64,000 bases of DNA. Origin: Apium graveolens (lineage: Eukaryota > Streptophyta > Magnoliopsida > Apiales > Apiaceae). The stretch is taken from assembly GCF_009905375.1 (NCBI RefSeq), contig NC_133647.1:172838790-172902789 (forward strand). Direction: 5' to 3'. The position numbers and the translations under genes are program-made. The notes beneath the pieces were generated by a model. It saw only the letters and a program-made list of their open reading frames with translations. It made no database searches and was not told the DNA's origin. Positions 20,259 through 55,127 of the stretch are shown here, piece after piece (within the stretch, counting starts at the first letter, position 1; the number at the start of each line of letters is the position of its first letter).

Positions 20259-21315
20259 TGTTAGGAATATATGTGCATTAGTTTGATGATATGTTTAACA
20301 AAACACTTAAGTAGAAATCTAGTGTTTGTAGCATCAACGGATAAGACCACTTTGGCTATCCGTTGATGGTGTAGCTTTACTTAGAAATAAGTCTAGTGTT
20401 GTAGCACATTTCAGTCTCTGAATTTGAGATATAATTCTTAAATGTTGAGGGAAATTATAAGTCATGTTGACTACTAAAGGATATGCAGATAGGAAGGCCA
20501 ATTGTAAATATTTCATGCCTTGTAATTTTGTATAAATGAAATGGTGTCAACGGATAACTTAAAGACCTTCAACGGATGAGAAACAAAGCTTCAACGGATG
20601 TCTCTAAAGCTTCAACGGATAACATCCTTCAACGGATGAGTGCATCAACGGATAGAGCTTCAACTGCTAACACATCAACGGATAAAGCCATCAACGGATG
20701 AAGGCTTCAACGAATGTTCTGTTAAATAGCAGTTGACAAGTGGTAGTTGTACCTACAAACAGAGGCATATGGGTTGACAGAGACAACTGAGATGTGGTAG
20801 CCTATTTCAGGAACATCAGAAAAAGCAGCCGTTCTACTCTAGTATAAAGAGGCAATAGTCAACAATGCACTGGAGTAAAATGGAGAAGAAACAAGTGGAG
20901 AACTTATTTTATTATTGTACTTTTTATCTTTGTCTTCACTTGTAAACTTGGTGATATATAAACCAAGTAGCAGCTAGTAATTAGAGAAGAATTTTTCCAG
21001 AGCTGTTTAGAAAAATCTTGAGAAAAATTATCTAATTTGTACTAGGATGCAGCTGTGATCAACTTCTTGAATCACAGATTTTCTGAAATACCATCTCTGG
21101 TGGAACAACAAATCCACCAGAAAAGTTTTTAAGGTCTGTTGTGTTCTGTACTTTTGTGCTTGAATATATATCTGTCTGTATTAGCTTAAAGCAATTCACA
21201 CACTTGTTTATCTTAAACACACAGCCTTTGAAACTGCTCAAAACTTGAAAAAGTTTTGAGATTTACATTCAACCCCCCTTCTGTAAATCTCATTGTTAGT
21301 TCACTAGGAATAACA
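20259..21315 (+). repeat. 5' LTR of element A
   Basis: 1057 bp. It holds ten exact copies of TCAACGGAT (one inverted) at 20334, 20357 (inverted), 20547, 20569, 20591, 20612, 20629, 20645, 20675 and 20691, mostly 16-22 bp apart, plus one degenerate copy at 20706. Near the 3' end lie two consecutive hairpins: aaaact/agtttt (21241-21258) and a perfect 10-bp stem gagatttaca/tgtaaatctc (21259-21268, 21283-21292) around the 14-nt loop ttcaaccccccttc. Confidence 0.95.
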
Positions 21316-21330
21316 ATTGGTATCAGAGCA
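21316..21330 (+). promoter_or_regulatory. Primer binding site of element A
   Basis: attggtatcagagca begins directly after the LTR. tggtatcagagc is the complement of the 3' end of plant initiator tRNA-Met, the usual copia primer. Confidence 0.9.
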
Positions 21331-21376
21331 GGCTCTTGACATACAAAGAGTTTAAAGTTCTTGGAAACTAACAAAG

Positions 21377-23789
21377 ATGAGTAAGAAGGATATTGGAGTA
21401 AAAATCCCAGTTCTTGACAAAGACAGTTATCACCATTGGAAGGTGAAAATGCACCTTCATCTACTCTCCCAAGATGAAGGTTATGTAAACTACATTGAGA
21501 ATGGTCCTCACATTCCCCACAAAGTAGCCACAGTTGCTACAGCCACAATTGTTGTTGGTCAATCCATTCCAAAACCTAGAGCAGAATGGACAATGGAAGA
21601 CACAGAAGAAGTCCACAAGGATAAGAAGGCCATGAACATTTTGTTTAATGGTCTTGACAAGGATATGTTTGATAATGTGATAAATTGCACAACTGCCAAA
21701 GAGGTTTGGGACACAGTTCAGCTACTGTGTGAAGGTACAGAACAAGTAAAAGAAAACAAAATGCAGCTTCTCATTCAACAGTATGAATATTTTCATTTTG
21801 AAGAAAATGAATCTTTAAATGACACATTCAATAGATTTCAAAAGCTGTTGAATGGACTGAAGCTGTATGGTAGAGTGTACCAGGTGAAGGATTCAAATCT
21901 TAAATTTTTAAGATCCTTGCCAAAGGAATGGAAACCCATGACTGTCTCCTTGAGAAACTCTCAAGATTATAAGGACTTCACTCTTGAAAGATTATATGGA
22001 ATCTTGAAGACTTATGAACTAGAGCTGGAACAGGATGAGGTATTGGAGAAGGGAAGAAAGAAAGGAGGTTCAGTTGCCTTGGTAGCTGAAAATGAGAAAG
22101 AATGCAGACAAGAGACTGTGAGATCAACATTAAACTCCAAAGATGGCACAAGCAAATCAGAATCAAGCAAGGGTAAGGAGCAAGTTGCTGAGAATGAAGA
22201 CAACTCCAGCCAAGATGACTCTGATGGTATTGATGAGCATCTTGCATTTCTGTCCAGAAGATTTGCAAAGATGAAATTTAAGAAAAACACTAGAGCCACT
22301 AAACCTCATAAGAACATGGTGGACAAATCTAAGTTCAAGTGTTTCAATTGTGGTATAAGTGGACACTTTGCAAGTGAGTGCAGAAAGCCAACTTCTGAAA
22401 AGAAGAAATTTGACCAAGTAGATTACAAAAAGAAATATTTTGATCTGCTCAAGCAAAAGGAGAAGGCTTTCATTACTCAAGAAAAAGACTGGGCAACTGA
22501 TGAGAAGAAGAGGATGAAGATGTGGAATATGTCAACTTGGCTCTCATTGCTGATTCTGAGGAAAATGAAGTTAGTTCATCAAGCAACCAGGTAATCACTA
22601 CTGATTTAACACAGCTTACTAAAGAAGAGTGCAATGATGCTTTTAATGACATGTCTACTGAATTGTATCACTTGCGTGTGTCTCTTAAATCTCTTGCTAA
22701 AGAAAATAGTAGGATTAAAGAGAACAATCTATTTTTAAGTAATAGAAAGCTGTATTAGAAGATAAGTTGATTGACCTAGAGAAAACTAAGCTACATTGTA
22801 TATCTGTTGAAAATGAACTAGCTGAATCTGTTAAGAAAGTAGAAATACTTTCTAATCAATTAGAGAGAGAGCAAGAGGTGATTAAAGCCTGGAAGACATC
22901 TAGGGATGTTAGTGCTCAAATTGTCAAGGTCCAGGGAATTGAATCATTTTGTGAGACTGCCTGGGATAAAAACAAAAAGAAAATGGAATTAATTGATGGG
23001 CTGTCAACGGATGTGGAATCAACGGATGATGAAAATTATCCGTTGAAGGAAGAAAAAGAGCATCCGTTGAAGGTTCCTCAATTAAAACAGGCAGATGTTT
23101 CTAACAATGAAAAACTAAAGAAACTCAACAAAAAGTTTGGTTCAACTTCCAAGAACTTTGTCAAAGAAGAAGCAAGCACATCCAAAGATTTCAGTAAGGT
23201 GAATATAGGACACATGACCTTAGAACAGTTAAAGAATAGGCTCAAAGTGGTTGAGGATAAAAAGGAAACTAAAAGGAAATCTAATAGAAATGGGAAGGTA
23301 GGGGTTAACAAACATAACAATTACACACCTGATAAGTATGCTCCTAGAAAAAGCTGTGTGCATTGTAATAGTGTTAATCATCTATCTGCTAAATGCAAAT
23401 CTATTAAGAAAACTCCCATACCTGTACCCTCTTCCATGCCTAATATGTCTGCATCACCTCTGCATGCTATGCCTGTTATGTCTCAACAGAATCCTTATGC
23501 ACATTTTGGAAACATGCCATATTTTAACAATCCTTATCTTGCTGCATTTAGTATGCCTCAAATGCCATACAATATGCCTATGTGGAATAACATGTTTGCA
23601 CAATCCATGCCTTATCAAATTCCAAATGTGCTAAATAATTCTGTGACTAACCCTACACCTCAACCAACTACATCTAAGATTAAGGTTGACTCAAAGTTAC
23701 CTAAGTCTAAAGATGCAGGAGGAATGAAGTCTAGGAGAAAGGCTAACATGAATGGACCCAAGGAAACTTGGGTACCAAAATCAACTTGA
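21377..23789 (+). pseudogene. gag of element A (two frameshifts)
   Basis: Starts at ATG 21377. The first 375 or so codons form a copia Gag with a DSYHHWKVKM segment, LCEGTEQVKENK and a CCHC knuckle (CFNCGISGHFASEC, about residue 325). A frameshift near 22500-22510, in a GA-rich run, moves the true frame to the open stretch reaching 22757. A second near 22755 moves it to the stretch 22767-23789. The C-terminal part has a coiled-coil-like region (VENELAESVKKVEILSNQLE), a second knuckle (CVHCNSVNHLSAKC) and a Met/Pro/Asn-rich tail ending WVPKST. Four copies of the TCAACGGAT word lie at 23004-23070. Full length would be roughly 800 residues, long for Gag but similar to B2. Confidence 0.85.
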
Positions 23790-23802
23790 TTGATTTTATG
23801 GT

Positions 23803-26800
23803 GTGCAGGGAAACAGAAGAAATCTATGGTACTTGGACAGTGGTTGTTCAAGACACATGACAGGAGATTTCTCCCTGCTCACAGAGTTTAAGGAGAGAGC
23901 TGGCCCTAGCATAACCTTTGGAGATGACAGCAAAGGGTTTACTATGGGATATGGCTTGATTTCAACAAGGAATGTCATCATTGATGAAGTTGCATTAGTT
24001 GATGGTCTCAAGCACAACTTACTGAGCATCAGTCAACTATGTGATAGAGGGAATACAATTTCCTTCAATTCTGAAGCCTGTGTTGTCACCAGTAAGAAAG
24101 ACAACAAAGTGGTTCTAACTGGAGTTAGAAAAGGAAATGTGTACATAGCTGACTTCAACTCTACTGATGCAGAATCTATTACTTGTCTCTTCAGCAAAGC
24201 AAGTCCAGTTGAAAGTTGGTTGTGGCACAAGAAGCTATCCCATTTGAATTTCAAGACAATGAATGATCTAGTCAAAAAGGACTTAGTTAGAGGAATTCCT
24301 CTTGTTGAATTCTCAAGGGATGGTTTGTGTGATGCTTGTCAGAAAGGCAAACAAAGGAAAGCATCATTCAAAAAGAAGCTTGAAACAACAATTGATGAAC
24401 CATTACAGCTGCTACATATGGATTTGTTTGGACCAGTCAATGTATTGTCAATTGCAAGAAAAAGATATTGCTTAGTGATTGTAGATGATTTCTCAAAGTT
24501 TTCATGGGTCTATTTTCTTGGATCAAAGGATGAAGCAAGTGAAATCATTATCAATCACATCAGGCAAGTCAATAATCATCCTGACTTGAAGGTTAGGAAT
24601 ATCAGGAGTGACAATGGAACTGAGTTCAAGAATTTGACAATGAGGTTGTTCTGTGAAGAAAATGGAATCATGCATGAGTTCTCAGCTCCAAGAACACCTC
24701 AACAAAATGGGGTAGTTGAAAGAAAGAACAGATCTTTAATTGAGGCTGCTAGAACAATGCTTGAAGAATCAAAGTTACCAACATATTTCTGGGCTGAAGC
24801 TGTTAATTGTGCCTGCTACACTCAGAATATTTCTTTGATCAATCAAGTTAAAGGCATGACTCCTTATCAGTTGTTCAAGAGAAGAAAACCAACTCTAAAC
24901 TTTCTTCATGTCTTTGGATGTAAATGCTTTATACTGAGAAATCAATCTGACCATAAAGGGAAGTTTGATGCAAAGGCTGATGAAGGAATATTTGTTGGTT
25001 ACTCAGCTGGAAAATCTTATAGGGTCTACAATCTAAGAACCAATATTGTTATGGAATCTGTGCATGTTGTGTTTGATGATAAAAAGATTGATGGACTAAC
25101 AGATGAGGGACACCATGAGAGACTTAAATTTGACAACATTGAGATATATTGTGATGATAGTGAAGAGGAGACTGATGGAGATGACACTTCAAAAGGGATT
25201 CAAAACATGCCCTTGGATAATGCACAAAATTCTGCATCCGTTGATAGAGGCAATGCAGTATCCGTTGAAAGACATAGTGCATCATCCGTTGAAGTACAAA
25301 ATGAAGCATCCGTTGATCATAGTTCATCAACGGATAATCAATTTACATCATCAGTTGATAGAACTCCAAGTTCCCTGCAAAGGACCAACAACTCAGGGGG
25401 AGTTTCAACTAATCAACACTCTGTCTCACATCATGACAATACTGAGGCCACTTCATCTAGAGTATATCTTCCACCTCAAAGGAAATGGACCAAGAATCAT
25501 CCCTTTGAACTGATCATTGGTAATGCATCATCTAAAGTGCAAACAAGAAAAGCTACTCAAGATGAATGTCTATACAGTAGTTTTCTATCTCAGGAGGAAC
25601 CTAAGAAAGTGGAAGAAGCTTTATTGGATCCAGATTGGATATTAGCTATGCAGGAAGAGCTGAACCAATTTGAGAGAAACAAAGTTTGGAAGCTGGTACC
25701 CAAACCAAAGAACAAGAGTCCTATTGACACAAAATGGGTATTCAGAAACAAGATAGATGAAAATGGCATTGTCATAAGGAATAAAGCCAGATTGGTTGCT
25801 AAAGGCTATTCTCAACAAGAGGGAATAGATTTTGATGAGACATATGCTCCTGTTGCAAGACTTGAAGCCATCAGAATTTTTCTAGCCTATGCAGCCCATG
25901 CCAATTTCAAAGTCTATCAAATGGATGTCAAGAGTGCATTTCTAAATGGGAAATTGGAGGAAGAAGTTTATGTAAGTCAACCTCCAGGGTTTGAAGATTC
26001 AAATTTTCCAGACTATGTGTATTATCTGTTGAAAGCACTCTATGGACTGAAGCAAGCACCTAGAGCCTGGTATGAAACCTTATCAAAATTCCTTTTGGAG
26101 AATCACTTCACTAGAGGTACTGTTGATAAAACTCTCTTCTTTAGGAATGTTAATGGCTCTAGTATACTTGTTCAAATTTATGTAGATGACATAATATTTG
26201 GATCTACAGATGATAAGCTTTGTAAAAAGTTTGCTAAGCTAATGCAAAGTAATTATGAAATGAGCATGATGGGAGAACTAACCTATTTTCTTGGTTTACA
26301 AGTTAAACAAGTTAGTGATGGAATTTTCATTAGTCAAACTAAATATATTTATGATCTTTTAAAGAAGTTTGACTTAATAGAATGTTCATCTGCAAAAACT
26401 CCCATGGCCACTGCCACCAAACTTGAATTAAATAAGACTAAAAGGTCTGTGAACATTACAAGTTATAGAGGTATGGTTGGTTCACTTTTATATTTAACTG
26501 CCAGTAGATCAGATATAATGTTTTCTACATGTCTCTGTGCTAGATTTCAAGCTGACCCTAAAGAATCTCACTTAGTAGCTATTAAAAGAATTTTCAGATA
26601 TCTCAAGGGGACTCCAAATCTAGGAATTTGGTACCCTAGAGAATCTGGTTTTGATCTAATTGGCTACTCAGATGCAGACTATGCAGGTTGCAAAATAGAC
26701 AGGAAAAGTACAACAGGCTCCTGCCAATTCCTGGGAAACAAGCTTGTATCATGGTTTAGCAAAAAGCAAAATTCAGTCTCTACTTCTACAGCTGAGGCTG

Positions 26801-27123
26801 AATACATTGCTGCTGGAAGTTGCTGCTCTCAAGTGTTATGGATGAGGAATCAGCTCCTTGATTATGGACTACATGTTGATAGCATTCCTATTTTTTGTGA
26901 CAACACAAGTGCCATAGCCATAACAGAGAATCCTGTGCAGCACTCAAGGACCAAGCACATTGATATCAAGTACCACTTCATTAGGGAACATGTGATGAAA
27001 GGTACAGTGGAACTTCATTTTGTTCCAAGTGAACAACAAATTGCAGACATATTTACCATGCCACTTGATGAATCAACATTCACAAGATTGGTAAGTGAGC
27101 TAGGTATGCTTAATTACTCTTAA
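23803..27123 (+). CDS. pol of element A: protease, integrase, reverse transcriptase, RNase H
   Basis: 1106 codons, open throughout. Domains by residue: aspartic protease LDSGCS at 11-16; GAG-pre-integrase [10 protein letters not shown] near 141; integrase core with D near 207 (HMDLFGP), D near 270 (DNGTEF) and E near 306 (VVERKNR); a variable linker about 430-580; reverse transcriptase from about 600 (KWVFRNK) with YVDD at 793-796; RNase H at about 953-1060 ([17 protein letters not shown]). The frame has no ATG at its beginning. It opens 13 nt after the gag stop and in a different frame, just after 'ggtgtgcag', which resembles a splice acceptor. Translation must depend on splicing, frameshifting or re-initiation. 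The integrase-RT linker holds five TCAACGGAT words (25236-25335). Confidence 0.93.
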
Positions 27124-27677
27124 AATTCATGTCCTCATTGCAATTTGAATTGAAGCCTGAAATGTATTAGCTGCAAGAACAAATTTGAGTTTTAACATAG
27201 ATTATTCCATCAACGGATATTCCCTATCCGTTGAAAGTCAAAATTGTTCTGTCAACGGATGTTCATTATCCGTTGAAAGTCATATACATTTCTGGAATTT
27301 TTATCCTTCAACGGATAAAACTGAAGTGCTCTTCAACGGATGACAGTTTACCTTATCCGTTGAAATATCACATCAGTCGATTCAAGTGTTTCACAGCCGT
27401 TGATTCTATTGTCTTAACCGCTGATACTCATACATACAGCTGTATGTATTTGTTTTAAAGGTAGTTTTTAGAATACTTACAGTTTATTCTTAAACGGCTG
27501 AAATTCACTTACACATATTTATTGTTTAATCTCTTATTTATTTTTTTTAATTTGAGAAAGTATATAAGCCCTTCTGATTTTTCATTTTTACTTTACGCTT
27601 TCTTGAAATTTCAAAGCTTTTACCATTTTCTCTCTGCAAAACCTTCAAGTTATTCTCTGCAATTTCTACTCACAACA
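27124..27677 (+). other. pol-ORF3 spacer of element A with motif pairs
   Basis: Noncoding. It carries seven copies of TCAACGGAT in both orientations between 27209 and 27365, several arranged as inverted pairs (for example 27209/27225 and 27252/27268) that could fold as stems. The region just before ORF3 is T-rich, like a leader. Confidence 0.8.
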
Positions 27678-30600
27678 ATGGCACCAGTAGTAAAGATTAT
27701 GTCTCAATCCGGGTTCATCTATGAGAAGAACAATTTCATAGATTTGGTAAAAAAGAATGAAGCCCACTCAGATTATCACAAAATGATGGATTTCATCAAA
27801 AACTGTAAACTTAGCTATGCAATGCTGGAAGCCCCAACGATTTACTGTGAAGTAGTTGAGGAGATTTGGACATCTGCTGAGTTCAACTCCATAGATATGA
27901 CTATCTCCTTCACTCTCAAAGGTAAAAATCACTGTGTTAACTGTGATGACTTACTAGCATGTTTTAAATTACCTGAGAACAATGCCATGACACCACACAC
28001 TGATAATGATGTATCCAGCATGTTAGATTCCATAGGTTATTCTCTTAACTCTGCTAGTTTAGGGAGTATTAGAAGAAAAGGCCTTAGGAAAGAATGGAGT
28101 TTTCTTGGGGATGCCTTTATCAAGGTTTTCTCTGGGAAAATTAGCAATTTTGATGCCATAACTTCATCTCTTGTTAATATGCTCTATATGCTTGTTTCTG
28201 ATATGTATTTTAATTTTAGCAACTATATTATGCTAGAATTGGGTACTAGATTAGGTAACAAAGCTAATAGACCTAATAACATCTATTATGCTAGATTCTT
28301 TATGTTATTGGCTAACCATGTTGCTGAAGGTTTGGTCATTACGAATGAGAATAATAAACTCAAGTGCTAGGCATAAGAGAAAAGAGTTCTTGCGGATTTA
28401 TTGAGAATGGATCTCAACAGCAGTGTGCCATTGGTATATTTACCAATCATGAATGCACCACAGGTAGGTGAGGTAATTGCTTCTACAACTCCTACTTCTT
28501 GCAACCCCTCTATTTCTTTATCTTCTGGTGTGGCCATGGAATCTGTGACAATGCCCCAACAGATTCCTACTAAGGTCACCAAAACTAAACTTTCAAAATC
28601 AAAGACAAAGAAAACCACCTCTGTTGTTTCTCAAAAGACAACAGTTGTAACACCTACCATTAACCCTGAGGAGAGTGAACAGGGTGTGAGTGGTGAGGGG
28701 AGGGGTAAACATCAAAGAAACCCCCAGGATAAGGAAGGAGAGAAAAGTGCTTCCCAAGCTAGCCAAGCCACAGTTTCTCAAAAAGCTGTGGTGGTTGAAA
28801 AGGTTACTAGCATATCCCTAGCTGCATCCTCCCAAAAGGATGTAACTATTGAAAATAGTTCCCAACCAGGAACACACAAACGAGGGAGGGACACTAAAGC
28901 CAAACACTCACCAACAAAAGCCTTTATTAGAAGAAAGAGAGCTAGAACCCAATCTTTTGCACAGGGTGCACACACTGCACAGATACATCCATCTGTATCT
29001 ATGCCTTCTCAAACTCAGTTTGATGTGGCTCCAACAAATGTGGAGTCACAGCCCCATTCTCTCACAATTAACACACATCAATCACCACACACTTCTTCAC
29101 CATCTCTAGATGTGGATATGTTATTCCCATCAATTCCTGATTCTCCCTCTTTACAACTCAGGGAGGAGCCCCACTCAAATACAGGTGATCATCATCTTTT
29201 AGATGATTTGTTGGATCACCCGCAAATTCTTTCAGATGTAATTGAAGGATCTGTGTCACCAAAACTCATATCAATCTACACAGATTCAACAGTTATATCA
29301 CTTTCAATTTCTACTTCTTTTCCTTCTTCAACGGATATCACTCATCCGTTGACAAGTGGTTGTTCTTCAACGGATAAGCTTAACAGCAGTTATCCGTTGA
29401 TACCATCAGTTTCACCTTCAACGGCTATTCCTCATCCGTTGATAGTCTCTACACACACAACTGAAACAATTCCAAGTGTAGAAGACTTGATTATTGTACA
29501 ATCACTTCTAGGACTGAGGGAAGGGAGTGACAATTTGAGTGAGAGGCTGGGTTGCTCCCAGGCAAAAGGAGAGATTGAGAGCTCAAATATGCATGCTATT
29601 TCTTCCAGCATGGCAAAAGTAAGTGAGAGGAGTACCACCTTAGTAGGTGAAGGTGAGGGAGTGAGTTGTGTGAGCCAGGGGGAGCCCCTGATGCAAGAAC
29701 ATAGAGAAAATGAGAGAAAGGCAGGTACAGCAGATATAAGGATGGATCCAGCCATTGCTAGTGAGTCAATGATTGTGAATGATGCTGAAAAGGAAAGACA
29801 ATTTCAGCAACATTACAAAGCTGTAATTGATAACATTTCCTTGGATGCTGACACTTTTACTCATCCTGTTTCAGCCTATCAAGTATTGGCTGCACAGGGC
29901 AATGTGGAGGCAGAAAAGACATTACATCTAGTACATACAACAGCATCTCTTCAAAGGGACAAAACTGCTATTAACAAGATGCCTTCAACAGCTGGTGAGT
30001 CATTTGAAGAATTTGGAGTAAATTCTGATGACGATGACTTTGTTTCTTCTGATGGAAGCATGAACTTAGGGGGAGATGAAGGCCCTAGTTCTATTCCAAA
30101 TCTACCTGAATGGGCCTTCACAAAGGAGTCTACAACAGGGCAATTCAATGTCTCCTTAGTCAAACAAATCAGTACTATCAAACAGGCCATTCAGAAAACT
30201 TCTCATGCTGGTACAAAGGCTATCCTTACAGCTCACTTGGACTCACTGCATCTCATGAAGTTGCAGCAAGTAAGACAGAATCTGAGTGTGGATGAACTCA
30301 GAAAGGATATTGCTGACTTGAAATCCTACAATTCTGAAAAATTGGATTCAGTCATGCCCTTTGGTACAATGCAGGACATTTTGTTGAGATTGAAAAAGGA
30401 ATCACATACTGAAAAGAGGTTGGACAAATTGGAAGACAGAGTTCAAGTTATTGAAGATTCTGTGGCCACCATTCTTCACAACCAACAATCTCAAACAAAT
30501 CTACTTATGCAGCTGGCAAAAGCACAGGGCTTGACCCATCTCCTTGATGATAACAAAAAGGGGGAGAGTAAAAGGGAAGGGGAAGGAGAGCCATCTACAA

Positions 30601-32207
30601 AAATCCAAATATCTAAAGTGCTAGTTCCTGCTATCACTACTTCTCCAATCATTCAAATCAAAGGAAAGCCTGATGGAATTGATTTAATCCAGCTAGCAGC
30701 AGCTGAAATTCAGGTGAAAGAGCAAAGGAGAAGAATTGATGAAAGGATGCAACAACTGTTTGGCTCAACACAAGATAAATCAATATCTGTGAAACATAGC
30801 ACAAAGGTTGAACCAATAAATATGGAGCACAAGCCAGAAAGGAGAAATAAGGTTGGAGAGACTTCTTTCAAGAATCTAAAACCTATGGTTCTCAAGCCCA
30901 ACACCAGATCCAGCAAGGACTCTACAAAGAACCCTCTAGACTTTGCTCAGATGAAAGAAGTGGACTTTCCTCTTCCAAAGCCTGATGAAGACAAATTTTT
31001 GGGTACAAGCATCACAAAACACAAGGAGAACATGGATGAGGCAGTAAGGAGAAACATGGCTATTATCTTTAGAGAGGGAAAGAGAATATGTGTGATGCAA
31101 GGACATCCCAAATTCTCAATAGCCAAGAGGGAAGAAACCAAAAGGTTAAAGAAAGAAGCTGAAAAACTCAAGGCTGACAAAAGAGCACAAGCAAAGCTTG
31201 AACAAAAGCTAAAGTCAAGTCTAGTTGAAAATGAGAAAGGAATTGAAGTCAGGGGTGAAGACAAGATTGCAAACTTAGATGAGGTTTTTGGGAGTATATT
31301 TGGTGAAAGCATGGAGGAAAAAGAGGAATGGCAGAAGGGAAACAGAAGAAAGGCCAAGGCACATAGAAGGAGTGAAGGCAACACTGAAGAAACTAAATCT
31401 CTACCTTCCATACCTGAACCCTTTGTTGCTGATCCCACTATAAACATCCATGGTGAACCAATCATCCCAAAAGAGGAACCTATTGATTGGGACACCATCA
31501 ATTTGCCTACCTTTTTAACCACTCTTCCACTACCAAAGAAACAGAAAGGAAAATCCAAATCTACACCTCCCCTAAACTCTAAGAAATTCACTCAAAAACA
31601 TAAACCTAACCCTAAGCCACCCATTTCTAAAGATGATTATGTTCACATCAGTGACATAAAAGAAATTTCAGACATTGAACTTTATCTGGATGATCTGGAG
31701 GATGTAAGGGGAATTGCTGCTTACAGACAGCTACCAGAGAGATTGGTGTTCAGATATAAAGGAGCTGGGGAAAGAACATGGCCTCTCTACAGGATTCTGA
31801 ATGAAGGCTACTCTACCTTGATCAGAGTCTTTTCAGCCATACAAAAGGATTTTGGCTTTACCAGGACTTCCAAGACTGAAATTCTCAACAAGATTGCCAA
31901 CATAAGGAAAACATGGAGGGAGCCCAATGCTTTGCCCAGAACCTTACTCATTCAAGAAAGGGGAACTACAATTCACAAATCACCTCATTGGTTGATGGAA
32001 TTCAGAGATGATAAAGGAGTCAGAAGATTTTTCAGACTTGAAGACCAAATCAAGATTGCCAGCAATGAAACTCTCAAAGAAATGCAATCTAAGTTGGATA
32101 TCAGTGATGAAGATGAAGCTGAATTCTTCAGACAACTCCAACTCCAAATTGAGGAAAATGACAAAGGGCTAGGAAAGAAAACCAGGGATCAAAGAAGAAA
32201 AAGATGA
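27678..32207 (+). pseudogene. ORF3 of element A, very long third ORF (two in-frame stops)
   Basis: I chose ATG 27678 (MAPVVKIM) because B2 ORF3 starts in the same way (MAPKDLIF); the open frame upstream is leader. The frame covers 1510 codons, broken only by TAG 28368-28370 and TAA 28374-28376. Three parts are visible. The N-terminal domain of about 230 residues includes LRKEWSFLGDAFIKVFSGK and ISNFDAI, matching REWSFFFDCITKAFGNK and SNFDAI in B2. A long S/T/P-rich low-complexity middle holds six TCAACGGAT words (29325-29445) and a coiled-coil-like stretch. The C-terminal part is conserved-looking and charged (SDIKEISDIELYLDDLEDV, WREPNALPRTLL). No signal peptide, transmembrane segment or known enzyme motif is seen, so 'envelope-like' is not supported. 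Function unknown. Confidence 0.75.
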
Positions 32208-32381
32208 TTTGCTCAGGCTAGAGGAGCACCCTTGGAAACACTGTAAATCTTCAATTACCTTCTAGTACATACACTTTTGCATCACTTTTAAATTTCTACT
32301 TAGTTTCAGTTCATATATTTGTTAAGTGTTTTGTTATCATCAAGTTAACCTTGAATTTATGTCTACAATTCTTATAGACAT

Positions 32382-32395
32382 AAATAGGGGGAGAT
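32382..32395 (+). promoter_or_regulatory. Polypurine tract of element A
   Basis: aaatagggggagat lies immediately before the 3' LTR and would prime plus-strand synthesis. The gggggagat core is shared with elements B, C and the gag-only element. Confidence 0.85.
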
Positions 32396-33452
32396 TGTTA
32401 GGAATATATGTGCATTAGTTTGATGATATGTTTAACAAAACACTTAAGTAGAAATCTAGTATTTGTAGCCTCAACGGATAAGACCACTTTGGCTATCCGT
32501 TGATGGTGTAGCTTTACTTAGAAATAAGTCTAGTGTTGTAGCACATTTCAGTCTCTGAATTTGAGATATAATTCTTAAATGTTGAGGGAAATTATAAGTC
32601 ATGTTGACTACTAAAGGATATGCAGATAGGAAGGCCAATTGTAAATATTTCATGCCTTGTAATTTTGTATAAATGAAATGGTGTCAACGGATAACTTAAA
32701 GACCTTCAACGGATGAGAAACAAAGCTTCAACGGATGTCTCTAAAGCTTCAACGGATAACATCCTTCAACGGATGAGTGCATCAATGGATAGAGCTTCAA
32801 CTGCTAACACATCAACGGATAAAGCCATCAACGGATGAAGGCTTCAACGGATGTTCTGTTAAATAGCAGTTGACAAGTGGTAGTTGTACCTACAAACAGA
32901 GGCACATGGGTTGACAGAGACAACTGAGATGTGGTAGCCTATTTCAGGAACATCAGAAAAAGCAGCCGTTCTACTCTAGTATAAAGAGGCAATAGTCAAC
33001 AATGCACTGGAGTAAAATGGAGAAGAAACAAGTGGAGAACTTATTTCATTATTGTACTTTTTATCTTTGTCTTCACTTGTAAACTTGGTGATATATAAAC
33101 CAAGTAGCAGCTAGTAATTAGAGAAGAATTTTTCCAGAGCTGTTTAGAAAAATCTTGAGAAAAATTATCTAGTTTGTACTAGGATGCAGCTGTGATTAAC
33201 TTCTTGAATCACAGATTTTCTGAAATACCATCTCTGGTGGAACAACAAATCCACCAGAAAAGTTTTTAAGGTCTGTTGTGTTCTGTACTTTTGTGCTTGA
33301 ATATATATCTGTCTGTATTAGCTTAAAGCAATTCACACACTTGTTTATCTTAAACACACAGCCTTTGAAACTGCTCAAAACTTGAAAAAGTTTTGAGATT
33401 TACATTCAACCCCCCTTCTGTAAATCTCATTGTTAGTTCACTAGGAATAACA
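32396..33452 (+). repeat. 3' LTR of element A
   Basis: 1057 bp, the same length as the 5' LTR, with 8 base differences counted by eye. Seven are transitions. One changes a TCAACGGAT copy to TCAATGGAT, while another position has the canonical word where the 5' LTR has a degenerate one. Confidence 0.95.
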
Positions 33453-36102: not shown

Positions 36103-36287
36103 TACTACCCTCCTTAAAAAGAATTTGGTCCCCAAATTCACAACAATCCTAAAGATCGAGACACATCTACCCCATTTACCCCCTGATCTACCAAAGATCA
36201 AACTATGGTCCACAAGAACGCATCCTAGAGAATGTACTAGTCTCATACCTAACACATTCCGAAGGACAACCTGCTCTGGATACCAAC

Positions 36288-41400: not shown

Positions 41401-41828
41401 AAAGAAGAAACTCCATTCCCTCCTTATGAAAGATCTCTTCCACTACCCCAGCTTTGCCAATGTCCTCTCATACCCCAGACTGGGCATCATGTTTTGAAGA
41501 ACTGGCTCTTCAACAGTAGAATAAACACAATTCTCAGGCAGCTGCAGTGCTTGTCGAACCGTAGCCAATGTCACGACATGCTCATCCTCTCCTGACGTAA
41601 AAATAATACTTGGAGACCCTTGAGCACCACCATCATCATATACTCCACTTCTCCAGAACTCCAGTACTTGAGTACCAGAGAATGCCTCAGGTTCGGTCAG
41701 AGCGTACCCAATATCAGAACTAGCAAGAAAGTCCTGAATGAAGTGAAGTTCTGATGGGGCTTCTGACTTGCTAAGAATAGCGGAGAAGTTATTAGGAACA
41801 AACTTAGCTCCATCAAAAATTATGTCTT
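38443..41828 (-). pseudogene. ORF3 of B1 (main part; start codon at 55127)
   Basis: Homologous along its length to the intact ORF3 of B2. Open stretches at 41259-40768, 40620-40375, 40350-39691, 39690-39403 and 39378-38443 are separated by stops and frame changes. The N-terminal domain (DGAKFVPNN, EAPSELHF, DIGYALTEPE) is readable to 41828, where B2 interrupts codon 6. The first five codons (MTPKD) lie at 55113-55127 on the far side of B2. The C-terminal segment (GATPERLNRLEYVQMVYHTF, KNYLRTTPDI) is present, but about 75 residues found in B2 between LLQVKDR and the end are missing. Confidence 0.8.
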
Positions 41829-42443
41829 TGTTAGGTCACACACACACTGTAGAGGGGGTGAATACAGTGTATAGTACACTCAAATCGAACTTAAGAACTT
41901 AAGTAACAGAAAACAAACTTTATTGAAATAATTAACTCTGTTACAGTATGGAACTGTTACCTCTCAATGATGAACAAATATCACGAGAGCTGCTAGGGTT
42001 ATAATGAATAATCTTCTCGAATATATGATAACACTTATAGTGTAAACCCTATGTCTGTGTTTATATACTACACAGTTACAAGATAATCGCTAATTGATAT
42101 GGAATATAATTCTGCTTCCTAAAATATATCAATCAGATATCTTTTCTTCCAAGTATTCCATTCTTCACGGAATTTCTTCTTCATGCATATCTCTTCTTAT
42201 GTTTATCTCGATCTTCTTTCCTTTAATCAGCTACTGTCCTTATCTGATCATCCTTCAGCACTTAAGTTCTGATATCTAACTTCTGATGATTATCTCCTGA
42301 TAATATAAGTACTGATATCCTTAAGTCCTGACTTCCAGTATAAGTACTGATCAACAGTTAAGTACTGATTTATCCTGTTCAAGTAAGATCTAAAAGCTAA
42401 ACATAAAACATATTAGCCATGACATTATCAAATATATCTAACA
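41829..42443 (-). repeat. 3' LTR of B2 (615 bp)
   Basis: Contains AAGTTCTGA at 42264 and related 'ctgata' and 'agtactgat' words through 42250-42380. The C-rich-loop hairpin acactgta/tacagtgt lies near the minus-strand 3' end. The adjacent polypurine tract is ttgggggagat (42444-42455). Confidence 0.92.
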
Positions 42444-42651
42444 ATCTCCCCCAACTTGTAAATTAGCATAATATACAAGTTTAACAGATATTTGATGATG
42501 TCAAAAACATTAAGTACAAATGCATGAGAATTAGACTAGATAACTACAACTTACAGTCCTTAAAGCTTTACCAATATTCAACTTCTGATAACAACTTCAG
42601 TCTGTACAAATATCAGAATTTAAGCAGTTGTAGATCTTCGACTTGGCTTCA

Positions 42652-45600
42652 TCATTTTCTGATCTCTCTGATGTCAGGAGTTGTTCTGAGATAGTTCTTC
42701 AACAAACATTTCTCAGCATATCTGAGTTCATCAATCATTCTCCTTTTGACATCTTTAAGCTCTGCAGTATCTTCACCAGTTTGAAAGATTGCAGCTCTGA
42801 GATCATTGATCTTTGCTTTTCTCAACTCCTGATCTAGTCTTATGACATAAGCTTTGTCAGACTCCAGATTGAATTCAAGTCCCTTAATACCAAGATATGT
42901 TCTGATCTGTGCAGTATTAGGCTTCATATCAACAATATCACCATTGTGATCTCTGTACTTTGGAACATATGTGCTGTCAGACTTAACAGAATAAAGCCTT
43001 TTCTGTCTCTGAATCTGTTCTTTTAAGTATTTTGCAGCAGTCCCTTTTATTCTGTCATCCACTTGAAGTAAGAAAAGTACATGCTCCAATTCTTCAAAAT
43101 ACTTCAATGGAATGGCATTTTGTCTTATATAATAAACCCTACCATCTGTCATGAAATACAACATGATGTATTCTTTCAAGTAGGTATGGTAAACCATCTG
43201 TACAGATTCCAGTTGATTCAATCTCTCAGGAGTTACTCCAATACCTGGTTCACTCAAGGAAGTTGGATCATTGGTAGTGTTGTGTACTCTTCTTTCATCA
43301 GCACTTCCCAATCCAGTTTTATCTCTTGCTTCCTTTCCAGTAACTACTCTTGCTTCAAAACCACTTGCAGTAGTCTTCAAAGATTGAGTCTGTTTTGCTT
43401 TAGTGAATCCTGGTAGGAGTATTTTTGATCTATCTTCTGATATCAAGTTAACTTGAGCTGTGTCAGAGGTTACTTGCTTCTGTTGAATATCAGAACTTAT
43501 AATTTCTTGACTCTGAACAACTTGAGCCATGTCAGAGGTTGTTTTAAGAACTTTTCTTGAATTCAGAGCAAGATCATCCTTTTCATCAGTAATTTCTTCA
43601 TCCTCAGGAGGTACATAAACCTTGATAGGTTCACCAACCTTTTCTTTACCCTTGGATCTTGGATCTATCTGTGGTTGTGATCTAGCCAATGTTGCTTCAG
43701 TATGTGTCCTTTCTTTGATCACAATGCCTTTGAGTTTTGGAAGTGACTTTTTACCAGAAGCTTCAGATTTGGATGTGACTTTCTCTGATTTAAGTCTGGC
43801 TTCTTCTTCCTTTAAACTTTCCAAGTCCATTCCTGGATTTTCTTGAAGAAATAACCATCTTGACATTTCCTCATCAAGATCTAAAAGTTCATCAGAACTT
43901 AACTTTTTACCAGCAGCAGAACTTATTCTTTTCCCAGTATCAGAACTTGTCCTGTGACTAGCTTGTCTTGATGTGAATCCTCTACCTTGACTATGACCTC
44001 TACCCATTCCAGAGCTTCCTTGATCATCTTTTTCATTATCATTTCCTGTCAGTGTCTTGTCAGTCTTGCATTTGGACTTAATCACTTTCTCCCCCTTTTT
44101 GGCATCAGTAGGTAGTAGAAGAGAGATAAGTAATTCCACTGAGGATTGGATTTCAGTAAGTTGTAATTGCTGAGAAGCTTGATTTGTCAGAATTTCATCA
44201 ATCTGAGCTTGTTGATGATCTTGAGTCTTCTCAATATAAGCAATCCTGTCAATGGTAGGTTGAAAGAACTTTTTCTTATCAATTTTCCAAACTTGTTCTT
44301 GTTTGATAAAGTTCTCCTGAATCTTGTGTAGCTCTGCATGAGTAGTTGAATGAAGACCTTTTAGATGTTTAGTACTCAATGCAGTGACCCTAAGCTGGGT
44401 TTTAAAATCATCAGAATTTAACATTGCATCAGCTTTAGTCAAGTGCTCAGCAAGATGTTTTTCAGCTGGAACACATGAAACTGAGTTCCATTCCTTAGTC
44501 CACTCCTGACCTGCAGGAGTTTCACTCCAAGGTACTGGTGCTTCCCCGGTAATAAACTGCTTAACCAATTCAGACTTAGGAATAGTCTGTTGAGGAGTTT
44601 GTCCGGAAGGACCTGCTGCATCAGTATCTACAACATGAGCAGTTGGAGCAGCATCACCAGTATCTCCAGCATGTGCAGCATCAGAACTTAAAGAATCAGT
44701 ATCTTCTGATAAGACAACAGTGTAAGTAGCAATGGAGGCTTCAGCATCCTCTAATTGCTGATCTTGTTCTAAGTTCTGATCAACAACCATATCCTGATGC
44801 TCACCTAAATTCTGATCATTAGCATCTTGATGCAGAGAAGGTGTTGTTGATGACTCTGAAGTTTGAACAGCATCAGTAACAGGTGTTGTGGAAGGAATAT
44901 TTGTTGTTGGAGCTTCTAAGAGAATTACAGCAGGCACAACCAAGTTTTGAACATCAATATCAGCACTTGTGCCTGGATCAACAGAAGACACAGAGGGTGT
45001 GTTAGCCTTTTCAGAAACAGCTTCCTGAGATGGAGTTGATGGAGAAGAAGTGACTGGAGCAAATTCCTTGTCTTGTGAGATCAGAGATTCCTGATCTCCT
45101 TCCTTAGCTGCTTCCTCTTCATCATCTGAAACTGGCCTTTTTTCCCTCTGTTTCTTGTATCTCGTTGTTGATTTGGATTCCTTGGGAGTTTCAGGAAATG
45201 TCATTCTTCTAAGCCGTTTGAGAATCCTAGATCCTCCAATTCCAGAATCCTTCTGAGAAATCACTTTCTCAGCTTCACCTACAACAGGTTCTGAAGAAGG
45301 AACCTGTTCCTCAGTATCAGATTCATCTCTCAGTACAGTCCTCCTCCTCTTTTGAGGTGTTTGAGGAATAGTTTTTGTCCTCTTTGGCTTGGAGGATGAG
45401 GGTTGAACAGTCTGTGAAGAAGAGAGATAGGATTTGAGATAAGTCCTGAGGGTAGGTTGAGTAGTATGAGTGGTAGGTGCTGAAGATGATGGTTTTTGGG
45501 TGTTTGTGGTTGGTTGGACATCAGAGTAAACATATCTATAAGTATCAGGATCAGCATTTACTAGAATCTGTTTTACAGACGGAGGAATCTGTAATGGTCT

Positions 45601-46344
45601 AACCACTGTTTTCTTTGTATCAGCATTTACCAGATCATTAAAGTATCGTTTTGCAACTCTAAAAGGTGGGGTTGAGGAACTGACTAATTGAGGTTCATCA
45701 GTACAAAAAGTATATATAAGTTGACAGAATCTAGCAAAATAGACAACATTTCTATCCTCTGTCATCCTATCCCCAATAGAACCAATTATTCCAGTTGCAA
45801 AATCAAAATGAGTTTGATGGATAATAGCATACCCTATGTGCTGACTCAGAATTGGGATAGCATCAAAATTCGAACATTTGTTCCCAAAAGCTTTGGTGAT
45901 GCAGTCAAAGAAGAAACTCCATTCTCTTCTGATATTAGCCCTTTTTAACTGCCCAAGCTTTGCCAAACTCTTTTCATATCCCAAATCAGCCATTAACTCC
46001 TGAAGTGCTGATTCCTCTGGAGTTGAAAAAGTACAATTGTCTGAGAGATGTAGAGCTTTGCGTATTGTACCAGGAGTGACTGCATAAGATGAATCACCCA
46101 CTTCAAAAACAATACTGGGAGTGCCATGTTTACCACCATCATCAAAGTGCCCAGTCCGCCAAAATGTCAGAACTTGTTGACTTGAAAAGACTTCAGGCTG
46201 AGTTAATGCATACCCAATCTCACTATGTGCAAGAAGATCTTGCACAAAATGCAATTCAGATGGAGCTTCAGCATGATCAAGAATTGCAGCATAGTTGTTT
46301 GGAACAAACTTAGCTCCATCAAAGATTAAATCCTTTGGTGCCAT
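42652..46344 (-). CDS. ORF3 of B2, intact 1230-residue protein of unknown function
   Basis: ATG at 46344 (MAPKDLIFDGAKFVPNNYAA), stop at 42652. Residues 1-260 form a conserved domain with LHFVQDLLAHSEIGYAL, VLTFWRTGHFDDGG, REWSFFFDCITKAFGNK and FARFCQLIYTF, repeated closely in B1 and B3. A basic K/R-rich stretch near 315-375 (KPKRTKTIPQ, KRRRTVLRDE) could be a nuclear signal. Residues about 390-830 are S/T/E/D-rich low complexity. The C-terminal 330 residues (GFEARVVTGKEARDKTGLG, TPERLNQLESVQMVYHTY, FNLESDKAYVIRLDQEL) are again conserved among the copies. No membrane segment or enzyme motif is seen. It occupies the same place as ORF3 of element A, with a matching N-terminal block. The surviving frame in a copy whose gag and pol carry stops is notable. 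Confidence 0.85.
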   Translation of the reverse strand: MAPKDLIFDGAKFVPNNYAAILDHAEAPSELHFVQDLLAHSEIGYALTQPEVFSSQQVLTFWRTGHFDDGGKHGTPSIVFEVGDSSYAVTPGTIRKALHLSDNCTFSTPEESALQELMADLGYEKSLAKLGQLKRANIRREWSFFFDCITKAFGNKCSNFDAIPILSQHIGYAIIHQTHFDFATGIIGSIGDRMTEDRNVVYFARFCQLIYTFCTDEPQLVSSSTPPFRVAKRYFNDLVNADTKKTVVRPLQIPPSVKQILVNADPDTYRYVYSDVQPTTNTQKPSSSAPTTHTTQPTLRTYLKSYLSSSQTVQPSSSKPKRTKTIPQTPQKRRRTVLRDESDTEEQVPSSEPVVGEAEKVISQKDSGIGGSRILKRLRRMTFPETPKESKSTTRYKKQREKRPVSDDEEEAAKEGDQESLISQDKEFAPVTSSPSTPSQEAVSEKANTPSVSSVDPGTSADIDVQNLVVPAVILLEAPTTNIPSTTPVTDAVQTSESSTTPSLHQDANDQNLGEHQDMVVDQNLEQDQQLEDAEASIATYTVVLSEDTDSLSSDAAHAGDTGDAAPTAHVVDTDAAGPSGQTPQQTIPKSELVKQFITGEAPVPWSETPAGQEWTKEWNSVSCVPAEKHLAEHLTKADAMLNSDDFKTQLRVTALSTKHLKGLHSTTHAELHKIQENFIKQEQVWKIDKKKFFQPTIDRIAYIEKTQDHQQAQIDEILTNQASQQLQLTEIQSSVELLISLLLPTDAKKGEKVIKSKCKTDKTLTGNDNEKDDQGSSGMGRGHSQGRGFTSRQASHRTSSDTGKRISSAAGKKLSSDELLDLDEEMSRWLFLQENPGMDLESLKEEEARLKSEKVTSKSEASGKKSLPKLKGIVIKERTHTEATLARSQPQIDPRSKGKEKVGEPIKVYVPPEDEEITDEKDDLALNSRKVLKTTSDMAQVVQSQEIISSDIQQKQVTSDTAQVNLISEDRSKILLPGFTKAKQTQSLKTTASGFEARVVTGKEARDKTGLGSADERRVHNTTNDPTSLSEPGIGVTPERLNQLESVQMVYHTYLKEYIMLYFMTDGRVYYIRQNAIPLKYFEELEHVLFLLQVDDRIKGTAAKYLKEQIQRQKRLYSVKSDSTYVPKYRDHNGDIVDMKPNTAQIRTYLGIKGLEFNLESDKAYVIRLDQELRKAKINDLRAAIFQTGEDTAELKDVKRRMIDELRYAEKCLLKNYLRTTPDIREIRK

Positions 46345-48739
46345 GTGAAAAAATTGAGATTCAAGTATGCCTGTTAGGTGTTTGATATAATGTCTGTATG
46401 AAAAACCAACGTGAGAAATAAAGAGAAAGATAGTAAAAGTAAGGAGAGAGATAAAATATGAAGAAAATAAAAGATTAAAGAAATCTTCTCTCTGTTGTAC
46501 TTATACTTCAAAAAAATGTTACCGTTGGACACCTGTCAGACATGCAGTAATAACGGATAGTTACTGGGCTCGAGAAAACAGGAATCATTACTTACCCATT
46601 TGCCTAGTTTCAAGGAAAAACTGTTCCATTTATCAAGAGAAACAGTTTTAATTCAAAATCTAAACCGTTATCACTGATTGAATTATTTTTCACTGCATCA
46701 TTAATATTCTGAAAATAAATCACATGAAAATGACCAAGATAAATTAGATAAGTGTTGAAAACGAATCAGAACTTAATATAAAACAAAATGTATAAGATCA
46801 TCAGAATATCAATCAGGATTTATCAACTCAAGATAAAATAACTCAGAGACAAAATCTTGAAGTAAAAACAAATTTCATTAATATATCAAGACAATACATT
46901 CATGAAATGGAAATTACATCAAGACTTATACAAGATTTTCCCTAAGCTTCTAAACCTAACATCAACAGCCTTAGTCCTAGCTAAGAAGCCTGACAAAGCT
47001 GATGATGAAGAAAAACAGGAAGAAGATGAGATTAAGTCATCTTCTTCTTCCTACTCTCGACAAACAGAATGGCGAGTCTGATGATTCGCTCTTGCTGGCG
47101 GAGAGCTGCCAGTCTTTCCTCCTCCAGTCGCTCCAAATGGCGATGGTAATCCATATAGAAGAACAGGAGATGGGTCAGTACCTCCTGTGGGACAGAGTCC
47201 CATATCTCCTCAGGAATGGCTGTGATATGCCATTCCTGCTGCCAGTCGGCACAGCTTAGCTCCATATTGAAGTTTTGGTAGTTCAAAAACATGTTGTATC
47301 TGACCATTGTGATTTTGAAAGAAAAAGTATGAAGATAAGTGTGTGAGAAGAATTTGATGGAAAGGCTGATGTGAAGTGGTTGCTTATAAAGGCAAGAGAA
47401 TGCTAGGAGACGTAAAGAAATTGAATGCTGACAGGTAGAATTAATTCTACCTCGTCTCCCGAGACTTTGAAAAAGAATAACATTCATTGGAAAGAGGAAA
47501 CATGGTTTAAAGCGCACAAGAAACAAGTAACATTGGACTGTTCAAGTACGAATACCAGTAATCCTAATCATAGTGACTATTAATCTTCCACTTCAACATA
47601 TTCTAGTTCGAACTGAGACTGTTACCAAATTTTATTCACAGATAAGCCAAGTAAAGGATTAGACTGAGAAATCAGAACTTAGACCTATACCAGAACTTAA
47701 CAGTCATCAGAACATAATTTCTTAACTCGAAAAAGGAATGCCCATCTTAGTAAATCCTCATACAAGTTATGAGTTATAGACTTCAGAACTTAATCATCAG
47801 AACGTGTAACAAGAACTTGTCCTCAGAATTTGTGCAATAATGACACAATGACTGTTTATCTAAAATAACGTAGACCACCATAGAAATTTTCATCATTCAT
47901 ATGGAGTGTAAGTGTGTGCATTAAGCAAAATATCAGACAAAGAGTAAAGTCTGATTCACTTCAGTACATCTTAGAAATAAGGCATAACTAAAATTTTGCT
48001 AAAGAGCTGTCATTGTCCTTAAACCTACTGATGAATGAGTTCATGCTTGAGTCCACCTCAACTGTTTTGTGCTAATTTTATGCATCTTTTGAAATTCTAT
48101 TTTACAGTGGCTTCTCAGTGTAAGTGAGTCACGACTGCTTATCAGAATTTATGCCATTATCAGAGTATTTCTCCAGTAATCATAGAGTGTGAAAAGTCAC
48201 CAAGAAAATATTTTTCTTTTCTAATGCATATTTACTTAATACCAGCAATGCACTTGGGTCGTCCCTTCCACATTTTTACTCTAGATCTCAAAGGAGTACA
48301 TGATTTTATTCTTTGATCTTTTTGTTTTTTCTTTTGATAGGTGAGGTTTATCAGCACTTAGTACATTCAGCAGTTTTACTAGTATCAGAACTTAACAGAT
48401 GAGTAGCATTATTCTAATTTGTGACTTAGTAATAAGATATACAAAGTAAACTCAACTAAGCTCAATTATCAGAATTTGCTAGTGTCATAAGATTTCCACT
48501 GAAATAATTACTTCTTGCATGGGATCATTTGTTTATTGAAGACTACTAGATCAGTATCTAGCACAGTTATCCTCATAGGATTGAATAGTTACTTGAACAG
48601 ACATATCACTTATCAGAGTTTAGAAACATATATCAGACAACAATCAATACTTAAACGTGTATTTTAATTAAGCACAGAATAAACAAGGAGATTACATTCT
48701 GTAAATACTGATCATAAAGTCTGATGCATCAGAACAAAA
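46345..48739 (-). other. pol-ORF3 spacer of B2
   Basis: About 2.4 kb, rich in TCAGAACTT-type words (for example near 46766, 47672, 47783 and 48387) in an AT-rich background. Apart from the small ORF listed separately, no coding potential is recognised. A segment at about 47880-48300 is highly similar to matching spacer segments in B1 (55780-56180) and B3 (62790-63200). Confidence 0.75.
47032..47307 (-). CDS. Small conserved ORF of family B (91 codons), unknown function
   Basis: I chose ATG 47307 (MVRYNMFLNYQNFNMELSC) because the B3 copy starts at the equivalent ATG; the open frame upstream is not conserved. The product is a small, soluble-looking protein: a W-rich N-terminal half (DWQQEWHITAIPEEIWDSV), then a probable amphipathic helix or coiled coil (HLERLEEERLAALRQQERII) and a basic end (ESRKKK). 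Against the B3 copy I count 44 base differences over 267 bp but only 11 changed codons, which points to selection on the protein. It has no resemblance I recognise. It stands between pol and ORF3, and B1 has lost it. Confidence 0.6.
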   Translation of the reverse strand: MVRYNMFLNYQNFNMELSCADWQQEWHITAIPEEIWDSVPQEVLTHLLFFYMDYHRHLERLEEERLAALRQQERIIRLAILFVESRKKKMT

Positions 48740-52090: not shown

Positions 52091-52138
52091 TCACAAAGAC
52101 CACTAATTATTAGTTTTAAGGACCCAGACTTGCTTGGA

Positions 52139-54439: not shown

Positions 54440-54480
54440 GATTGTGTTTGGATCTTTAACTGTATGTGTGTTAACAGATA

Positions 54481-54493
54481 GGCTCTGATACCA
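54481..54493 (-). promoter_or_regulatory. Primer binding site of B2
   Basis: Minus-strand tggtatcagagcc, two bases after the 5' LTR end, complementary to initiator tRNA-Met. Confidence 0.88.
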
Positions 54494-54495
54494 CT

Positions 54496-55112: not shown

Positions 55113-55127
55113 GTCTTTTGGTGTCAT

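What the first reader, a model, noticed from the sequence alone, without database searches (positions are those of the whole stretch)
20259..33452. Family-specific word TCAACGGAT scattered about 40 times through LTRs, spacer and coding DNA of element A
Seen: about 42 copies in both orientations. They lie in each LTR (10), the gag 3' part (4, 23004-23070), the integrase-RT linker (5, 25236-25335), the pol-ORF3 spacer (7, 27209-27365) and the ORF3 middle (6, 29325-29445). A 9-mer is expected well under once in 13 kb by chance. In coding parts it is read as STD, SVD/SVE or (H/Y)PL depending on strand and frame, so the DNA or RNA word is what is kept. Copies avoid the conserved enzyme domains and sit in linkers. 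In the 3' LTR the word is restored where the 5' LTR has a variant. Hypothesis: a binding site for an element-encoded protein (ORF3 or Gag), comparable to VANDAL elements, whose VANC protein recognises a family-specific short motif and counters silencing.
Basis: partly seen in the sequence, partly recalled or inferred. Interest (0 to 1): 0.8.

Follow-up and report, generated by a model that had tools for sequence, protein, structure and literature searches.

The report
Family-specific DNA word in plant retrotransposon
A plant retrotransposon carries one short DNA word 41 times, in its ends and inside its genes, and a related element keeps a different word in matching places, which looks like a self-recognition code read by a protein.

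Summary
TCAACGGAT occurs 41 times in the window, all in element A (20259-33452), against 0.24 expected. A is a Sirevirus-type Ty1/copia element. The word extends to TCAACGGATR (R in 41 of 41). (1) A is nearly free of CpG: 41 of its 58 CpGs lie in words, and so do all 9 CpGs of the gag, gag-3' and pol frames. (2) Related element B has another word, YAAGTNCTGAT, at 46 sites, in its LTRs and its integrase-RT linker too; A has none at that threshold. Among B-family copies this word changes less than its flanks, also at third codon positions, though one of two controls is weak. (3) Relatives' proteins suggest that words of an array differ together: HPL in A, HQL at three sites in carrot. Best reading: a selected, family-specific DNA recognition site. 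Its reader, perhaps the element's ORF3 protein, is inferred. Closest known: Sirevirus repeated motifs and VANDAL/VANC. New variant of a known kind.

The parts
20259..33452 (+). Element A: Sirevirus-type Ty1/copia LTR retrotransposon with both LTRs, target-site duplication GTTCG
20259..21315 (+). 5' LTR; 10 exact words (20334-20699), 9 of 10 in one orientation; variant at 20707; TATAAA at 20843 after the array and at 20531 before its main part
32396..33452 (+). 3' LTR; 10 exact words (32471-32852), variant at 32782; 99.24% identical to the 5' LTR
21321..21329 (+). Primer-binding site TATCAGAGC preceded by CA/ATTGG
   Evidence: consensus from PMC2829016
32386..32393 (+). Terminal polypurine tract AGGGGGAG followed by AT/TG
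   Evidence: consensus from PMC2829016
21377..22594 (+). gag (PF14223, zinc knuckle); no word, no CpG
23004..23070 (+). Word array in the gag 3' reading frame, 4 copies (+ + - -), read STD, STD, YPL, HPL
23803..27123 (+). pol reading frame: Pfam integrase, SH3 and RT domains
25236..25358 (+). Word array in the integrase-RT linker: 5 exact copies plus one variant, read SVD/SVE/STD
27210..27403 (+). Word array in the pol-ORF3 spacer: 7 exact copies plus one variant
27522..28370 (+). ORF homologous to the N-terminus of B ORF3 (about 26% identical); a stop separates it from ORF3 in the same frame
28401..32207 (+). ORF3, 1268 aa: no Pfam family above cut-off, no hydrophobic stretch of membrane type by Kyte-Doolittle, basic clusters; candidate reader of the word (inferred)
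29328..29442 (+). Word array in ORF3: 5 exact copies plus one variant, three + - pairs read STD or STA and (H/Y)PL
41828..55116 (-). Element B: related element (pol 63% identical at protein level) with its own word YAAGTNCTGAT
50526..50750 (-). Five of six B words (11 bits or more) in B's integrase-RT linker, the place that matches 25236-25358 of A

Best explanation
TCAACGGATR is a family-specific double-stranded DNA recognition site. It is kept by selection in the LTR and in tolerant stretches of the element: the spacer and protein linkers. A sequence-specific protein binds these dispersed arrays and marks the 13 kb as 'self', most likely to open its chromatin or counter silencing. Shown: enrichment, signs of selection on the DNA rather than the peptide, and a different word in matching places of a related element. 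Inferred: that a protein binds it, that the protein is ORF3, and the anti-silencing outcome.
For: Count 41 vs 0.24 expected; tenth base a purine in 41 of 41. 41 of 58 CpGs of A lie in words; CpG o/e is 0.04 with words masked. In the gag, gag-3' and pol frames all 9 CpGs lie in words; 10 of 14 NCG codons of A's five reading frames lie in exact words and 1 in a variant. Both orientations and several reading frames. Element B carries another word at 46 sites vs 1.1 in 30 shuffles, 0 in A at 12 bits; 6 words in its IN-RT linker and none in RT-RH at 11 bits. B-family copies, 14 alignments: word identity 0.898 (1413/1574) vs flanks 0.837 (3839/4587); 0 of 100 column-permuted motifs reach this difference; identity is 0.97-0.99 at three fixed positions, 0.86-0.94 at the other fixed ones, 0.68 at the free one. 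Third codon positions in B ORF3: 32/36 in words vs 801/1213 elsewhere. Pol linkers: A traces 34 vs 5.7 expected in the 8 sequences at 74% identity or more (A included), B traces 59 vs 16.2 in the 25 at 60-66% (B included). ORF3 arrays: HPL in A-like rows, HQL at all three sites in two carrot proteins, HPS in celery proteins; third residue agrees across the three sites in 10 of 13 rows vs 3.1 by permutation. Different words in related elements of one host fit an element-encoded reader better than one host factor. ORF3 of A and B shows no membrane-type stretch and has basic clusters.
Against: No binding or methylation data. Both ORF3 models are poor (mean pLDDT 54 and 59); the one searched gave no meaningful fold match. 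The shifted-mask control is weak: word identity 0.898 against a mean of 0.870, sd 0.027, maximum 0.919. Second codon positions in B ORF3 words are no better than elsewhere (32/38 vs 1043/1219). All 16 Heracleum rows of the ORF3 alignment have eroded arrays. Linkers at 66-74% (n=5) and 50-60% identity (n=65) show neither trace above expectation. A Heracleum relative of ORF3, P0003, has a hydrophobic stretch (1.91). Words of relatives are inferred from proteins; no DNA of another A copy was seen. B words are more degenerate and more scattered than A words. Motifs and trace patterns were chosen after seeing the data.
Confidence: 0.5

Rival explanations
1. Host transcription-factor site. The word contains AACGG, the core of the MSA element bound by plant MYB3R proteins, so the arrays would be enhancers driving cell-cycle or stress expression; coding copies would be internal enhancers.
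For: AACGG is named as the MSA core in PMC8964727 (passages). The LTR arrays lie before a TATAAA at 20843, as Sirevirus repeated motifs lie before a TATA box; another TATAAA at 20531 lies before the main array. Clustered sites in both orientations are usual for enhancers (general knowledge).
Against: The B word has no AACGG, and the inferred celery word TCGAYGGAT lacks it too. Related elements in one host would need different host factors in matching places. Copies also fill linkers many kilobases from the LTR.
Confidence: 0.25
2. RNA-level function: inverted words form hairpins in genomic RNA used for packaging or dimerisation, or seen by the host as small-RNA precursors.
For: Stretches of up to 150 bases from the gag, spacer and ORF3 arrays fold much better than shuffles (z -7.97, -4.95, -6.18). 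In maize Sireviruses small RNAs map to palindromic clusters (Bousios et al. 2016 as described in PMC10760457, passages).
Against: The LTR stretch folds worse than shuffles (z 1.85) and the pol linker only weakly better (-2.15); the LTRs hold 20 of 41 copies. B words are all in one orientation in each LTR (7 of 7) and in the spacer (8 of 8).
Confidence: 0.17
3. Neutral spread: words multiplied by slippage or template switching and are simply young, with no function.
For: LTRs differ by only 8 of 1057 bases; the number of traces varies among relatives; VANDAL motif arrays expand as tandem repeats (PMC5735166); some LTR words share a few flanking bases.
Against: Within gag, gag 3' and pol, CpGs survive only in words; flanks of the words are only mildly alike (C in 19 of 41 at -3, A in 26 of 41 at +2); aligned ORF3 sites differ in parallel; B words outlast their flanks.
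Confidence: 0.06

Closest known systems
Sirevirus repeated motif (RM), Bousios et al. 2010, PMC2829016
   Same: Short repeat in high copy number, in the upper half of the LTR and upstream of the additional (ENV) gene; CGG in most of them; CpG islands; sequence varies among elements.
   Different: The reported RMs are palindromes in non-coding DNA, with extra copies at the start of ENV in two elements. Here the unit is non-palindromic, 9 of 10 copies per LTR are direct, and 14 exact copies lie in reading frames of gag 3', pol and ORF3. Element B's word has no CGG (neither has the reported Tnd-1 motif).
VANDAL transposons and VANC proteins (VANC21 motif YAGTATTAY; VANC6 motifs), PMC5735166, PMC10398659
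   Same: Short, family-specific, repeated word; related elements have different words; words appear to change together.
   Different: VANDALs are DNA transposons (general knowledge), their motif lies in non-coding regions, and binding plus loss of methylation were shown by experiment. Nothing of this was tested here, nor was a relation of ORF3 to VANC.
MSA element bound by MYB3R, PMC8964727
   Same: AACGG core, repeated, both orientations.
   Different: The element's site is fixed over nine bases plus a purine, and related elements use words without this core.

Membership tests
Sirevirus (Ty1/copia) | Met-tRNA PBS TATCAGAGC after CA/ATTGG | tested here: met
   at 21321; consensus
Sirevirus (Ty1/copia) | Terminal PPT AGGGGGAG 10 bp before the 3' LTR with AT/TG | tested here: met
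   at 32386; consensus
Sirevirus (Ty1/copia) | Several identical PPT octamers, mostly within 0.5 kb of the 3' LTR | tested here: inconclusive
   5 octamers in A, but the extra ones lie in ORF3 (29677, 30068, 30559) and in pol (25395), not near the LTR
Sirevirus (Ty1/copia) | C-rich integrase signal near the LTR 3' end | tested here: inconclusive
   CAACCCCCC lies in the last 70 bases of the LTR; the 19-bp consensus itself was not compared
Sirevirus (Ty1/copia) | Copia gag, integrase and RVT_2 order, often an additional gene after pol | tested here: met
Sirevirus repeated motif (RM) | At least eight copies, in the upper half of the LTR and upstream of the additional gene | tested here: met
Sirevirus repeated motif (RM) | Palindromic unit with dyad symmetry, CGG-CCG in most | tested here: not met
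   Unit is not palindromic; + - pairs at 16-base spacing make a dyad 4 times, once with a variant word; LTR copies are mostly direct
Sirevirus repeated motif (RM) | Restricted to LTR and linker, apart from the start of ENV | tested here: not met
   14 exact copies in gag 3', pol and ORF3 frames
VANDAL/VANC system | Short family-specific repeated motif differing between related elements | tested here: met
VANDAL/VANC system | DNA transposon encoding VANC | tested here: not met
   A is an LTR retrotransposon; similarity of ORF3 to VANC itself was not tested
VANDAL/VANC system | Element protein binds the motif and removes methylation | not testable with these tools
   needs DAP-seq, gel shift, bisulfite sequencing
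MSA/MYB3R site | AACGG core | tested here: met
   sequence; core
MSA/MYB3R site | Bound by MYB3R | not testable with these tools
   needs binding data

The most novel reading that the evidence does not exclude
Apiaceae Sireviruses use a self-recognition code. Each family encodes a DNA-binding protein (ORF3) that reads its own short word, written throughout the element including its coding DNA, and word and protein change together so that each family lifts silencing, or drives packaging or transcription, only for itself. This would be a VANC-like system arisen separately in LTR retrotransposons.
Probability: 0.3. Interest if true: 0.85.

Novelty: new variant of a known kind. Interest (0 to 1): 0.62.

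Why it matters
The 2010 paper on Sirevirus repeated motifs could assign no single binding factor (PMC2829016, section 19), and I met no later assignment in the passages I read. Finding that such a word also occupies coding linkers, holds most of the CpGs left in the element, and differs between related elements in matching places turns an LTR oddity into a testable code: a reader protein should switch specificity with the word. If element-encoded, it would be a separate sequence-specific self-recognition or anti-silencing system in plant transposons.

Tried and rejected

The ORF3 concordance table was typed by hand: 13 rows, namely A (which missed the anchors) plus the 12 non-Heracleum rows of the 28 (of 42) that had both anchors. 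16 Heracleum rows with eroded arrays were left out. P0032, P0034, P0038 and P0041 show an array or part of one but missed an anchor and were not counted: P0041 is mostly HPS, P0032 and P0034 mixed, P0038 broken. The other rows without both anchors were not used. The permutation ignores relatedness.

Not-in-print statement: the listings (titles, abstract starts) showed no paper on such words in Sirevirus coding regions; only CC0, CC BY and CC BY-SA papers were searched. Papers: PMC2829016 abstract and sections 6, 7, 9, 10, 12, 13, 19; PMC5735166, PMC8964727, PMC9073684, PMC10760457, PMC11728184 passages only; PMC10398659 abstract and outline; PMC3599292 first of two parts. Bousios et al. 2016 was not read.
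Full report
What is there. TCAACGGAT occurs 41 times in the 64-kb window, every copy inside element A, against a shuffle mean of 0.24. Element A (20259-33452) has 1057-bp LTRs that are 99.24% identical, copia gag, integrase and RT domains and Sirevirus junctions: PBS TATCAGAGC after CA/ATTGG, PPT AGGGGGAG with AT/TG, a C-rich stretch near the LTR end, and a GTTCG target-site duplication (consensus from PMC2829016). The named relatives of its ORF3 are celery, hogweed and carrot (Apiaceae). The pol list also holds Asteraceae, and the B ORF3 list one broomrape.

Shape of the word. The base after the word is A or G in 41 of 41, the base two before it is a pyrimidine in 39 of 41, and further flanks are only mildly alike. 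Copies point both ways. In each LTR 9 of 10 are direct; neighbours in the main LTR arrays are 16-30 bases apart. Four + - pairs share a 16-base spacing, one of them with a variant word. In coding parts the word is read STD, SVD/SVE, YPL or HPL.

The word is kept as DNA. Element A has 58 CpGs in 13,194 bp; 41 are in exact words. With the words masked the CpG observed/expected ratio is 0.04, while GC is 1.00. The ratio is 0.57 before A, 0.53 between A and B, 0.13 in B and 0.21 after B. In the gag, gag-3' and pol frames there are 9 CpGs, all 9 in words. Across the five reading frames listed, 14 of 757 four-fold C-family codons are NCG: 10 in exact words, 1 in a variant. Pol has 0 CGN against 54 AGR arginine codons. 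The element has lost or shed CpG almost everywhere else, yet the words keep theirs. Element B is also depleted although its word has no CpG, so the CpG is not what every family keeps; the word is.

A second family, a second word. Element B (41828-55116, minus strand; pol 63% identical) lacks TCAACGGAT but has TAAGTTCTGA 12 times vs 0.17 expected and AAGTTCTGAT 14 vs 0.26. A refined motif, YAAGTNCTGAT, gives 46 sites at 12 bits vs 1.1 in 30 shuffles and 0 in A; at 7 bits A has 6, like shuffled DNA. The motif was fitted on B, so the k-mer counts are the less biased figure. B words at 11 bits lie 7 per LTR, 6 in the IN-RT linker, 0 in RT-RH, 1 in PR-IN-SH3, 6 in gag, 13 in ORF3, 8 in the spacer and 2 after ORF3.

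Words outlast their flanks. In 14 alignments among the B-family copies of the window, word cores are 0.898 identical and flanks 0.837; none of 100 column-permuted motifs gives so large a difference. Sliding the mask gives a mean of 0.870, sd 0.027, maximum 0.919, so this second control is weak. Identity by position mirrors the motif: 0.97-0.99 at three fixed positions, 0.68 at the free one. A first version with 36 alignments in both directions gave 0.900 in words, 0.812 in flanks and 0.858 further away. In B ORF3, third codon positions are identical in 32/36 within words and 801/1213 elsewhere; first positions 24/26 vs 984/1218, second 32/38 vs 1043/1219. Alignments overlap and are not independent. 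For family A itself no second copy's DNA was reached, so this test was not run on it.

Relatives. Among 103 of 122 pol linkers that could be cut out, the 8 at 74% identity or more (A included) hold 34 A-type traces vs 5.7 in shuffles; the 5 at 66-74% hold 2 vs 2.0; the 25 at 60-66% (B included) hold 59 B-type traces vs 16.2, 44 of them in six sequences (B, P0060, P0061, P0066, P0068, P0072); the 65 at 50-60% hold neither in excess. P0075 and P0045 are not significant alone. In ORF3 the three antisense sites read HPL/YPL in A, P0015 and P0022, HQL at all three in the carrot proteins P0014 and P0036, and HPS or YPS at one or more sites in the eight celery rows. Read back, these imply TCAACTGAT in carrot and TCGAYGGAT in the second celery group; this is inference from protein. 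Concordance across sites is 10 of 13 rows (permutation mean 3.1) and 12 of 13 (7.2) for the two residues. All 16 hogweed rows have lost the pattern. P0047, a celery gag-pol, keeps 3 of the 4 gag-3' traces.

Mechanism. Words in both orientations and several frames, kept at silent sites, are best read as binding sites on double-stranded DNA. Two related elements use different words in matching places, which points to a reader that diverges with the element. The additional gene diverges strongly (its N-terminal region is about 26% identical between A and B, against 63% for pol). In A and B it shows no membrane-type stretch and has basic clusters, though the hogweed relative P0003 has a hydrophobic stretch; this speaks, weakly, for a soluble, perhaps nuclear protein. 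Its structure could not be modelled well. RNA hairpins are possible in three arrays but not in the LTR stretch.

Against what is known. Sirevirus repeated motifs (PMC2829016) share place, copy number and, for A, the CGG, but are palindromic and almost wholly non-coding, so the strict definition is not met. VANDAL/VANC (PMC5735166) shares the idea of a short family-specific repeated word, not the type of element, and binding there was shown by experiment. MYB3R sites share AACGG (PMC8964727), but the B word and the inferred second celery word lack it.

Verdict.

Noticed in passing
25395 (A); 50631 and 50477 (B); 29677, 30068, 30559: The PPT octamer AGGGGGAG also lies in the integrase-RT linker of both A and B, like a central PPT, and three times in A's ORF3. 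A loose GG[A/V/D/G/F] trace is seen in 25 of 103 linkers.
   Followed up: partly
20259-33452 and 41828-55116: Extreme CpG depletion: A 0.04 with words masked, B 0.13, with arginine coded almost only by AGR; 0.57 before A and 0.53 between A and B.
   Followed up: partly
21377-32207: gag, gag 3' part and pol of A lie in three different frames and a stop separates two ORFs after pol, so this copy may be inactive.
   Followed up: no
37615-41827 and 55117-64000: Pieces of further B-family copies, nested around B on the minus strand.
   Followed up: partly
11194-13074: 378-bp direct repeats (96%) flanking a gag-like stretch on the minus strand, a possible small LTR element.
   Followed up: no
35017-37373 and 3661-6354: Direct repeats of about 1.09 kb (94.7%) and 0.56 kb (94.8%).
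   Followed up: no
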